Source: Synechococcus sp. UW140 (lineage in GTDB: Bacteria; Cyanobacteriota; Cyanobacteriia; PCC-6307; Cyanobiaceae). Taken from it: a DNA stretch of 64,000 bases. The translations under genes were made by a program, and so were the position numbers. The stretch is taken from assembly GCF_900474295.1 (NCBI RefSeq), contig NZ_UCOB01000031.1, positions 1-64,000 of the forward strand, written 5' to 3'. Positions within the stretch are counted from its first letter, which is position 1. Each line of letters begins with the position of its first letter. The notes beneath the pieces are model-generated. The model had not been told where the DNA came from and ran no database searches. It saw only the letters and a program-made list of their open reading frames with translations. This document shows positions 49,827 through 63,248 of this stretch, piece after piece.

Positions 49827-49848
49827 AAAAAGCCCGAACGCGTCGGGC
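49827..49848 (-). terminator. Rho-independent terminator after guaB3
   Basis: On the minus strand a GCCCGA / TCGGGC stem with a CGCGT loop is followed by five T. It lies about 100 bases past the guaB3 stop and about 100 bases ahead of the trxA start, so it separates the two transcripts. Confidence 0.8.
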
Positions 49849-49951
49849 CGGAGGGTGTGAGGAGTGTGTGGGCCGGAGCCCGCACGCCTGAAGATTAACG
49901 CTTGTCTCAGGCGTCTCAACCATCTTCGTTGCTTTGCAGTGGTCGGGGTTC

Positions 49952-60278: not shown

Positions 60279-60638
60279 TCAGCGGCTTGGTTCAAGCTTG
60301 AAGGACTGGAAGGGATCAAAGCCCTCTGCAGGTCTGGCTTGCTGGCGAAGTGATTGCTTCAGTTCGATCAGTTCAGATTGCTGTTGTGCCATCCGGCCGA
60401 TGCGATCTTCCAAGTCCCGCTGATTGGTTTGGAGCTGCTGGAGCTGCTGCTCCAGCAGCTTGCTGCTCACTGAGGGGTTCTCCTCCAGACGTTGCTCGAG
60501 ATCTGCGAGTCGTTGTTGGATCCGGTTGATGGTGGTGGTGTGCTGTGCGAGGGCCTGCCAGAGCACCATGAACAGCACCGCGAGCATGCTGATCCCCGCA
60601 ATTGGGATCAGCATCCAGACCATTTGTCTCGCCTGCAT
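60279..60638 (-). CDS. Hypothetical membrane-anchored coiled-coil protein
   Basis: A 119-residue protein: transmembrane helix (MVWMLIPIAGISMLAVLFMVLWQAL, residues 6-30), then a long glutamine-rich coiled coil (INRIQQRLADLEQRLEE, LEQQLQQLQTNQRDLEDRIGRM). The two methionines (60638, 60623) give alternative starts. No named family recognised. It diverges from the Nif11-domain gene. Confidence 0.72.
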   Translation of the reverse strand: MQARQMVWMLIPIAGISMLAVLFMVLWQALAQHTTTINRIQQRLADLEQRLEENPSVSSKLLEQQLQQLQTNQRDLEDRIGRMAQQQSELIELKQSLRQQARPAEGFDPFQSFKLEPSR

Positions 60639-60712
60639 CTGCGCCGATTGCGCCTCTTGCGACAGTGCTAGCAGTCCTGACGTCAGGATGGGCTTGTGGA
60701 TGGAATGTGTTG

Positions 60713-60958
60713 ATGGCTTTGAACGATTTGGATCAGTTGCTGGCGTTACGCAGTGAGGATCCTTCTCTTGCCGAGCGGATGGCCGGCCCCCTCGATCTCG
60801 AGGCCTTGATTGCGCTGGCGGCCGAGCGTGGACTCACCGTCACAGAAGCCGATGTTTTCGCTGCCCAGCAACGGGAGAATTCAGATCGGTCCTCCGCTCA
60901 GCTTCAGCAGGAGGCTGCCCAGGAGTCCCGGCGTCTCCGCCATTTCATTCAGGGTTAG
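60713..60958 (+). CDS. Nif11-domain small protein
   Basis: An 81-residue protein from ATG 60713 with the Nif11 pattern: LNDLDQLLALRSEDPSLAER, then PLDLEALIALAAERGLTVTEADV. In picocyanobacteria this domain forms the leader of lanthipeptide-like prochlorosin precursors. Here the C-terminal part is charged and Gln/Ser-rich, has no cysteine and no clear Gly-Gly cleavage motif (it ends HFIQG), so it looks like a non-precursor Nif11 protein. No LanM-type gene is nearby. Confidence 0.78.
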   Translation: MALNDLDQLLALRSEDPSLAERMAGPLDLEALIALAAERGLTVTEADVFAAQQRENSDRSSAQLQQEAAQESRRLRHFIQG

Positions 60959-60967
60959 CAAGGGCTG

Positions 60968-61195
60968 GTGTTGCACGACACCGCATGCTCAGGCCCTTTT
61001 GCGGAATCTTGGGGAGGACGATTCCTTCGCTTTGACGTGGATTCCAGCAATCGGTCCATTGAGCGCATCGGCTCTGAAGGCTCTCGACCTGTCTGTGACC
61101 ATGCAAATCTTCTGTTGCTGCGTTTTGACGACAGCCAGGATCTGATCGATCAAGATCATTTCCTGGCCTGGGATGAACTGTTGGGCTTGCGCTGA
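60968..61195 (+). CDS. Possible small acidic protein, 75 residues
   Basis: A frame from GTG 60968, ten bases after the Nif11-domain gene: SWGGRFLRFDVDSSN in the first third, then LLLLRFDDSQDLIDQDHFL, acidic throughout. It may be co-translated with the Nif11 protein. Two cysteines (Cys7 and Cys43 approximately) are present. No family recognised. The opposite frame is less protein-like. Confidence 0.42.
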   Translation: MLHDTACSGPFAESWGGRFLRFDVDSSNRSIERIGSEGSRPVCDHANLLLLRFDDSQDLIDQDHFLAWDELLGLR

Positions 61196-61213
61196 GCACC
61201 CAGAATCGAGCTC

Positions 61214-61420
61214 TCAGCGCAGCATCACCACGTCTGGTGTCACTCCAAGAATCTGGCCGATCCAGAGCGCGTGGGTGACAGCTCCTTCGTGGGTGTGAAA
61301 CGCCCAGGCATTGTCTGGGGAGCTGACGTTCTCAATCTGTTCATCTTGGGCGTTCACCCTTAGATAGGTCCCAGCGCGGGGGCAGCGGAGCACGAAGCGC
61401 TCGATCGAGAAGTCCGTCAT
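61214..61420 (-). CDS. Hypothetical protein, about 68 residues
   Basis: From ATG 61420 (an ATG at 61429 adds three residues): MTDFSIERFVLRCPRAGTYL, then NVSSPDNAWAFHTHEGAVTH and ALWIGQILGVTPDVVML. Soluble, with beta character, no motif recognised. It converges on the small acidic frame at 60968. Confidence 0.55.
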   Translation of the reverse strand: MTDFSIERFVLRCPRAGTYLRVNAQDEQIENVSSPDNAWAFHTHEGAVTHALWIGQILGVTPDVVMLR

Positions 61421-61543
61421 CTTCATCAACGATCTCGTTGAGACTCACTATTTCGATAGCGATGGCGGGCCCTTTGAAGGCCCTGATCCTTTGTTTTCTT
61501 GCGGTTTTCATCAACGGTTTGTGACAGCTCTGTTGACGCTGGC

Positions 61544-62738: not shown

Positions 62739-63248
62739 TTGCGGATACGTGCTCTGGGCTGTGCCCTTCTATTCGGCTTGGCGATCGGTGCAGGCTCCGG
62801 TCTATCGGTCCGGGCTGAAACCTGGGACAGGATTGGTCGTTTTGCTGCGACGCTCCGCAAAGCCGGCACGTCCACTCTGGTGGCCAGGGATTGTCCGAAC
62901 ACCTTGCTCGGTGCTTTCCATTCCGAACGCAATGCCCTGCTGATCTGTGCCAACAACCTCCCCAACGATCCTGCGGAGATCTGGGAGGTGCTGGCCCATG
63001 AGGCGGCTCATGTGATGCAGCATTGCCGCGGTGGCCCGCTGCTGGTGGAGGGTCAGATGGACGATGCGATTGCCCGGGTGCGCTCCCGTTCGCCGCGTCT
63101 GTTCAAGGAGCTGAGTCTCTATCACAGCAGTCAGCACCGCGATGAGGTGGAAGCTCGGCTGGTGCAAACCCTGCCCCCCGATCAGGTGGAAGCCTTGTTT
63201 CAGCGGTTCTGCGCGACGCGACTGACTGGAACGAGCTCGGATTCGTGA
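62739..63248 (+). CDS. Secreted protein with HExxH motif
   Basis: A 169-residue protein with a signal peptide (MRIRALGCALLFGLAIGAGS, then AET at the expected cleavage site) and the zinc metallopeptidase motif LAHEAAHVMQHC. A further acidic residue ligand may be in DDAIARVR or DEVEARLV. Four cysteines could form disulfides. It is probably a small periplasmic metalloprotease-like protein, but the catalytic proof is lacking. GTGA overlap joins it to the next gene. Confidence 0.65.
   Translation: MRIRALGCALLFGLAIGAGSGLSVRAETWDRIGRFAATLRKAGTSTLVARDCPNTLLGAFHSERNALLICANNLPNDPAEIWEVLAHEAAHVMQHCRGGPLLVEGQMDDAIARVRSRSPRLFKELSLYHSSQHRDEVEARLVQTLPPDQVEALFQRFCATRLTGTSSDS

What the first reader, a model, noticed from the sequence alone, without database searches (positions are those of the whole stretch)
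60713..61420. Nif11-domain protein without a precursor core, with small neighbours
The 81-residue protein has a clear Nif11-type domain but no cysteines and no Gly-Gly cleavage motif, and no lanthipeptide synthetase is nearby. A small acidic frame with two cysteines follows within ten bases. Nif11 proteins without core peptides have no known role in picocyanobacteria. The acidic frame could be a partner or a separate peptide.
Basis: partly seen in the sequence, partly recalled or inferred. Interest (0 to 1): 0.55.

Follow-up and report, generated by a model that had tools for sequence, protein, structure and literature searches.

The report
Nif11 leader with a frozen tail
This small protein looks like the leader half of a peptide-antibiotic precursor, but its end is fixed instead of variable, and it occurs once per genome in many ocean and lake picocyanobacteria, so it is probably an ordinary cellular protein rather than a hidden antibiotic.

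Summary
The Nif11 protein (60713-60958, +, 81 aa) is real: Pfam Nif11 37.3 bits against a cut-off of 23.8. It is one of 14 Nif11 matches in the genome, but not a canonical lanthipeptide precursor. It is found in 30 of 30 same-genus genomes and, as one strong copy, in 124 of 251 genomes of the family. In 40 orthologues the last 11 residues (ESRRLRHFIQG here) are 89% identical pairwise and the leader-like part 54%; in 31 GG-type precursors from four relatives the figures are 7% and 67%. The old cleavage site is recognisable but decayed: GG in 0 of 40, Gly-Ala in 8, never hydrophobic at -4. The genome has no LanC-like domain.

The 60968 frame is partly right. A relative with 99% identical Nif11 has a stop in its first part. 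The conserved gene has 52 codons, 61037-61195, follows nif11 wherever this could be told, and its relatives are under purifying selection.

In Cyanobium-type relatives a DUF427 gene follows nif11 (28 of 32 loci). Best reading: a leader-derived adaptor, not secreted, whose fixed tail binds a partner. The function is inferred, not shown.

The parts
60713..60958 (+). orphan Nif11 gene (81 aa, pI 4.55)
   Evidence: Pfam Nif11 37.3 bits; 30 of 30 same-genus genomes; purifying selection against relatives; pI
60713..60922 (+). leader-like part, residues 1-70, matching TIGR03798 positions 1-67 of 68
   Evidence: predicted helices 2-15, 17-24, 29-38 and 45-78
60923..60955 (+). fixed tail, residues 71-81 (ESRRLRHFIQG), in the position of a precursor core
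   Evidence: 89% mean pairwise identity in 40 orthologues; codons vary while residues do not
61037..61195 (+). conserved small gene of 52 codons (GTG start, inferred from conservation), C-terminal motif like FL-x-W-[DE]-[DEN]-L-[LIV]-G-x-R
   Evidence: selection measured in five relatives
60279..60638 (-). divergent neighbour: 119 aa, hydrophobic N-terminus and coiled-coil-like helix, fast evolving
   Evidence: found upstream of nif11 in 28 of 30 loci; only matches below the curated cut-offs in Pfam
61214..61429 (-). convergent neighbour, 71 aa, no family above cut-off, conserved
   Evidence: 29 of 30 loci (in the missing one, L015, the contig ends first)

Best explanation
It is a stand-alone, leader-like Nif11 protein, not a canonical RiPP precursor. 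A small helical Nif11 domain (residues 1 to about 56) continues into a long predicted helix that ends in a nearly invariant basic-aromatic tail (RRLRHFI-x-G). The tail sits where a precursor has its variable core, and the protease site before it has decayed, so the protein most likely stays whole and inside the cell. Mechanism proposed: as RiPP leaders dock to enzymes, the Nif11 domain docks to one protein and the fixed tail is a short binding motif for another, making it an adaptor or regulator. The best candidate partner is the DUF427 (beta-tent) protein encoded just downstream in Cyanobium-type relatives and kept elsewhere in this genome. Shown: domain, one strong copy per genome, fixed tail, decayed site, gene linkage. 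Inferred: intracellular, adaptor role, DUF427 as partner.
For: Profile matches. One strong full-length copy in each of 124 of 251 family genomes; in a class-wide sample of 291 genomes full-length matches occurred only in the family. The 40 orthologues form one clade in a tree without the tail (95/99; bootstrap not settled). Tail 89% and leader part 54% identical, against 7% (core) and 67% (leader) in 31 GG precursors from four relatives; Cys+Ser+Thr 3% of the tail against 26% of those cores; GG in 0 of 40. Position -4 is R, Q or E in 40 of 40; in the C39 peptidase LahT150 it is usually Val, Leu or Ile, and Lys or Asp there blocked cleavage while Thr did not (PMC6363468, passages). No LanC-like domain in the genome. 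A long-type DUF427 gene begins 1-161 bases downstream (stop to first aligned base), same strand, in 28 of 32 Cyanobium-type loci, and lies within 200 bases in 42 of 71 genomes compared by coordinates. Of 251 genomes 108 have both genes, 111 neither, 32 one alone. Locus L091 carries both neighbourhoods: leuA and ugpE upstream, DUF427 downstream.
Against: No function, expression or binding was tested. The tail part of the model has low confidence (block means 45-66), so a folded binding helix is not shown. 16 of 251 genomes have nif11 without the long DUF427 and 16 the reverse. In the 71 compared, 19 more pairs lie within 5 kb (two of them convergent) and 10 are far apart or on other contigs; in the 16 same-genus genomes listed (the window's included) the genes are unlinked by coordinates. 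Co-occurrence is confounded by shared descent and genome reduction. 8 of 40 members have Gly-Ala at -2/-1, an accepted double-Gly variant, and Leu-7 is kept in 40 of 40. A gene 1.8 kb downstream (62739-63248) has a weak match, far under the cut-off, to a RiPP-type HExxH peptide hydroxylase model (17.9 against 40 bits). LanC-like was the only modifying domain sought genome-wide.
Confidence: 0.55

Rival explanations
1. Fixed-core peptide: the tail is cut off, by a protease other than a classical C39, and serves as a conserved signal or cofactor, as happens with invariant-core peptides such as those of PQQ and mycofactocin (recalled).
For: The tail is in core position behind a recognisable leader motif (compare LSDEELQRRAG with ELSDEELEAVAGG in Table 3 of PMC2887384, passage) and is the most conserved part. 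8 of 40 keep Gly-Ala. A DUF427 gene of unknown function follows in Cyanobium-type relatives, and a weak match to a HExxH peptide hydroxylase lies 1.8 kb downstream here.
Against: GG in 0 of 40, -4 never hydrophobic; among ten proteins scanned around the gene no exporter or modifying enzyme reached a cut-off (the one transporter part is an importer-type permease); no Cys and hardly any Ser or Thr in the tail.
Confidence: 0.12
2. Relic: a leftover lanthipeptide or bacteriocin precursor that lost its core and enzymes.
For: The nearest non-orthologous matches are GG-type leaders in picocyanobacteria.
Against: Purifying selection, e.g. 1 non-synonymous against 9 synonymous changes to the closest relative; fixed tail; one strong copy in 124 of 251 genomes.
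Confidence: 0.05
3. Decoy leader or chaperone for the genome's own GG-type Nif11 peptides: it binds the C39 exporter but cannot be cut.
For: The genome has GG-type Nif11 proteins and three C39 genes; Leu-7, important for C39 recognition, is kept in 40 of 40.
Against: Not linked to any C39 gene; two of the three hydrophobic anchor positions (-12 and -4) are lost in the window protein. Its distribution was not compared with that of C39 genes.
Confidence: 0.12
4. Redox or iron-linked adaptor acting with the neighbouring ferredoxin.
For: A 2Fe-2S ferredoxin (Fer2) follows nif11 in 18 of 30 loci. Transcripts of a 'Nif11 domain-like protein' rose with iron in an ocean metatranscriptome (PMC9723758, passages); the passage does not say which Nif11 protein.
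Against: Not at the locus in the window nor found near nif11 in any of the 32 Cyanobium-type loci; seen in part of one genus only, so likely a later insertion.
Confidence: 0.08

Closest known systems
Nif11-like leader peptide family / N11P (TIGR03798)
   Same: Nearly the whole leader model aligns (residues 1-69); 40 of 40 orthologues match at E <= 0.01, the best 3.7e-18, so automatic annotation is likely to call many of them RiPP precursors.
   Different: No GG, fixed tail instead of a variable core, one strong copy per genome, and the window protein falls just below the curated cut-off (32.1 against 32.3 bits).
Prochlorosins / synechococsins (ProcA/SyncA)
   Same: The nearest non-orthologous matches, in genomes G004, G082 and G123, are GG leaders with variable, often Cys-rich ends; I call them prochlorosin-like by sequence only.
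   Different: No GG and no Cys in the tail (3 of 40 orthologues have a Cys in the leader part, the window none); no LanC-like domain in the genome.
Group F Nif11 proteins of marine Synechococcus with conserved -GEYH/N- end (PMC10783134, passages)
   Same: Also Nif11 proteins with a conserved C-terminus and unknown function; the window's genome has one ending GEYN (L001).
   Different: Different tail, different protein.
Unk10 of the chromatic acclimation (CA4) island (PMC3877281, one passage)
   Same: Nif11 domain protein of marine Synechococcus of unknown function.
   Different: 107-118 aa and in the CA4 island; this one is 81 aa, beside a ugpE-like permease gene.

Membership tests
Nif11 domain (PF07862) | profile score over the curated cut-off | tested here: met
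   37.3 against 23.8 bits
Nif11-like leader RiPP precursor (TIGR03798) | profile score over the curated cut-off | tested here: not met
   32.1 against 32.3 bits, a near miss; other orthologues score far higher (best E 3.7e-18)
Nif11-like leader RiPP precursor (TIGR03798) | double-Gly cleavage site | tested here: not met
   GG in 0 of 40; Gly-Ala in 8 of 40, hydrophobic -4 in 0 of 40; the window has A-Q at -2/-1
Nif11-like leader RiPP precursor (TIGR03798) | hypervariable core after the leader | tested here: not met
   tail 89% identical in 40 orthologues, against 7% for 31 precursor cores
Prochlorosin-type lanthipeptide | LanM synthetase in the genome | tested here: not met
   0 LANC_like (PF05147) matches in a draft of 99.98% completeness
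Nif11 RiPP of another class | other modifying enzymes (YcaO, radical SAM) in the genome | not tested
   no genome-wide search was made
Nif11 RiPP | linked C39 peptidase-transporter | tested here: not met
   three C39 genes, none on contig C15
Known fold in the PDB | structural match to a solved chain | tested here: inconclusive
   no Foldseek match at E <= 0.001 and best Z 3.0 in the second look; 9zn4 'Nif11 domain-containing protein' only weakly by sequence, E 0.18

The most novel reading that the evidence does not exclude
A RiPP precursor whose core has become frozen across a bacterial family: the nearly invariant RRLRHFI-x-G tail is released as a picocyanobacterial peptide signal or cofactor, with DUF427 as a processing or receiving partner, so that a kind of protein usually seen as a variable weapon has become part of the basic equipment of the Synechococcus/Cyanobium lineage.
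Probability: 0.12. Interest if true: 0.8.

Novelty: new variant of a known kind. Interest (0 to 1): 0.5.

Why it matters
Nif11 proteins are commonly named RiPP precursors by automatic annotation, and a survey of marine picocyanobacteria counted 206 clusters with other Nif11-related precursors (PMC10783134, passage). Here is a widespread orthologous group that matches the leader model yet has the opposite conservation pattern: the 'core' is frozen and the leader drifts. It offers a sequence test (tail conservation, state of positions -1, -2 and -4) for separating real precursors from leader-like proteins, makes the open question of what Nif11 proteins do outside RiPP pathways testable on a single-copy gene in culturable Synechococcus, and ties it to another protein of unknown function, DUF427.

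Tried and rejected
Palindrome TCCTGACGTCAGGA upstream of nif11 (centre 31 bases before the ATG): present only in the window and its closest relative among 30 loci; its 12-base core with up to one mismatch occurs at 13 places in the genome against 12 for the reversed control, so not the operator of a regulon.

Glutamine synthetase link: two of the papers found with 'DUF427' concern DUF4278, a prefix match. Dropped.

Mass evidence: PMC8002600 (one passage) assigns m/z 9067.28 to a Nif11 protein of SYNS3 (strain CC9311, recalled). Several orthologues weigh near that, but which Nif11 protein it is could not be told. Not used.

Phage origin: no tblastn match in 50,697 phage records at E <= 0.01. 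Rfam: one match in the window, Yfr1, 11 kb away. tRNA: none in the window.

Structure: Foldseek found no match at E <= 0.001; the second look covered its 12 chains only, best Z 3.0, alanyl-tRNA synthetase fragments on top. Taken as uninformative.

Tree: 70 columns for 88 rows, bootstrap not settled, long branches, outgroup not on one side. It supports the orthologues as one clade but not their place relative to GG precursors, so whether the fixed-tail protein came from a precursor or the reverse is open.

Literature: searches with 'Nif11' (one search listed 10 of 60 papers) listed no paper that I recognised as being about this protein. Of twelve papers opened I saw passages only, no whole text and no supplements. 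The library holds only open-licence papers.

Full report
What is there. Residues 1-47 match Pfam Nif11 at 37.3 bits, cut-off 23.8, and residues 1-69 match nearly the whole NCBI leader model TIGR03798 (positions 1-67 of 68) at 32.1 bits, just under its cut-off of 32.3. The genome (2.70 Mb, 35 contigs) holds 14 Nif11 matches, 13 over the cut-off, no LanC-like domain and three peptidase C39 genes on other contigs. Some other Nif11 proteins of the genome do have Gly-Gly, for example two ending GVGNSGL.

Orthologues. A protein search of 60 genomes found it in 33: the window's own, 30 of 30 same-genus genomes, and two of six others of the family. In the 30 loci read (29 of the genus, the window's included, and one, L020, of a second genus) each gene is 81 codons; 29 start with ATG and one alignment starts at TTG. 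A profile search of 251 genomes of the family gave 129 with any match: 124 with one strong copy each (E below 1e-19) and five with weak or partial matches only. In 291 genomes of the class, full-length matches (E 2.1e-26 or better) occurred only within the family; other cyanobacteria matched only part, mostly within the first 56 residues and at most to residue 65, with E 1.8e-5 or weaker. A scan of genome contigs gave 48 loci, 47 of them relatives (Synechococcus, Cyanobium, Aphanothece, one Prochlorococcus, uncultured and other cyanobacteria) and one weak Phycisphaerales match. Lengths are 81 or 84 residues.

The tail. In 40 orthologues the last 11 columns have 89% mean pairwise identity and the part before them 54%. 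For 31 GG-type Nif11 precursors from four relatives (20 of them from one genome), the leader is 67% and the first 11 core residues 7% identical. The precursors are largely paralogues within few genomes, so the two sets are not strictly comparable, but the reversal is plain. In 30 loci the codons for R73, L75 and R76 take five, five and six forms for one residue, so selection acts on the protein, not on the DNA. Cyanobium-type members read like LSDEELQ-x-RAG-x-EARRLRHFIPG, which lines up with the leader motif ELSDEELEAVAGG of Haft et al. (PMC2887384, Table 3, passage). The double glycine is gone: GG in 0 of 40, Gly-Ala in 8 of 40. Leu-7 is kept in 40 of 40, Leu-12 in 28 of 40, and -4 is R, Q or E in 40 of 40. 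In LahT150, a C39 peptidase acting on Nif11 leaders, Lys or Asp at -4 blocked cleavage while Thr did not; Arg, Gln and Glu there were not in the passage (PMC6363468, passages). Of the 31 precursors, 28 have one of V, I, L, M, T or A at -4 by the script's count. Cleavage of the window protein by a C39 peptidase is therefore unlikely; for the Gly-Ala members it is less excluded.

One origin. In a tree of 88 proteins from which the tail was left out, the 40 orthologues form one clade (95/99), but 70 columns do not place it relative to GG precursors, and the bootstrap had not settled.

Structure. AlphaFold2 with 40 sequences gives four helices, the last one long (45-78); mean pLDDT 77, falling to 45-66 in the blocks of the tail region. 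No useful structural match was found. A solved 'Nif11 domain-containing protein', 9zn4, matches only weakly by sequence (E 0.18).

The second frame. The 75-codon frame from 60968 is open, but in G011, whose Nif11 is 99% identical, one C-to-T difference makes a stop in its first part. The conserved gene is shorter: a start codon lies 52 codons before the stop in the window, G011, G014 and G018, and 51 to 56 before it in eight more genomes of the genus and two of a second genus, several beginning M[ST]FW. All end in a motif like FLSWDDLIGQR. In five relatives dN is 0.16-0.31 and dS 0.71-1.62 (one pair saturated), with the last 20 codons most constrained, so it is a gene; for the window itself the comparison with G018 over the last 57 codons gives dN 0.32 and dS 1.2, while that with G011 has only six changes, three of each kind. 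In 251 genomes it has 11 clear matches, E 1e-9 or better, and two weak ones; by coordinates all 11 clear ones lie just downstream of nif11. In G014 the two genes are on different contigs and adjacency cannot be told. No Pfam family matches it convincingly.

Neighbourhood. In most same-genus loci the order is leuA, ugpE-like permease, a divergent 119-aa protein, nif11, a variable slot, and the convergent 71-aa gene. The slot holds the small gene, a 2Fe-2S ferredoxin, both, or neither; the ferredoxin is there in 18 of 30 loci but not in the window (in L015 the contig ends too early to tell; Fer2). In loci L061-L092, Cyanobium-type and largely from lakes by their record titles, the downstream neighbour is a long-type DUF427 gene, 1-161 bases away on the same strand in 28 of 32; in L082 it is 2.1 kb away, and none was found in L064, L065 and L069. 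SRAP lies upstream in L076, the one locus tested by profile. L091 combines leuA and ugpE with DUF427, which suggests that nif11-DUF427 linkage is old and was broken in the marine genus. The window's genome keeps the long DUF427 on another contig. In 251 genomes both genes (DUF427 at E <= 1e-40) are found in 108, nif11 alone in 16, DUF427 alone in 16, neither in 111. This is not corrected for descent, and many reduced genomes lack both. Of 71 genomes compared by coordinates the pair is adjacent (within 200 bases, same strand) in 42, otherwise within 5 kb in 19, and apart in 10. DUF427 has a beta-tent fold and unknown function (PMC4287342, passages).

Against the reading. A gene 1.8 kb downstream (62739-63248) matches, far under the cut-off, a model of RiPP-type HExxH peptide hydroxylases (17.9 against 40 bits) and, nearer its cut-off, peptidase M76 (22.4 against 25.2 bits). 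YcaO and radical SAM enzymes were not sought genome-wide.

Interpretation. The evidence speaks firmly against a lanthipeptide precursor with a hidden core, and against a relic. What the protein does is inference. A leader-like domain of a kind that docks to enzymes, with a frozen tail and a decayed protease site, is most simply an intracellular adaptor. The main rival is a fixed-core peptide. Both are testable by mass spectrometry. No paper listed in my searches was recognised as describing this protein, though papers report other Nif11 proteins with conserved ends or without known function.

Noticed in passing
L157 (G000:C8:79300-79900) and L158 (G000:C3:61200-61900): Two GG-type Nif11 proteins of the same genome share the end GVGNSGL after GG; the genome has C39 peptidases but no LanC-like domain, so these may be exported without lanthionine modification.
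   Followed up: no
window 61214-61429 (-): A 71-aa protein with no family above cut-off, conserved downstream of nif11 in 29 of 30 loci.
   Followed up: no
L017 and relatives, between nif11 and the 71-aa gene: A 2Fe-2S ferredoxin gene present in 18 of 30 loci and absent at this place in the window.
   Followed up: partly
window 62739-63248 (+): Small protein with HEAAHVMQH; weak matches below cut-off to peptidase M76 and to a HExxH peptide hydroxylase model.
   Followed up: no
window 49829-49885 (-): Yfr1 small RNA, 67.8 bits.
   Followed up: no
window 60675-60688: A perfect 14-base palindrome TCCTGACGTCAGGA upstream of nif11, shared only with the closest relative among 30 loci.
   Followed up: yes
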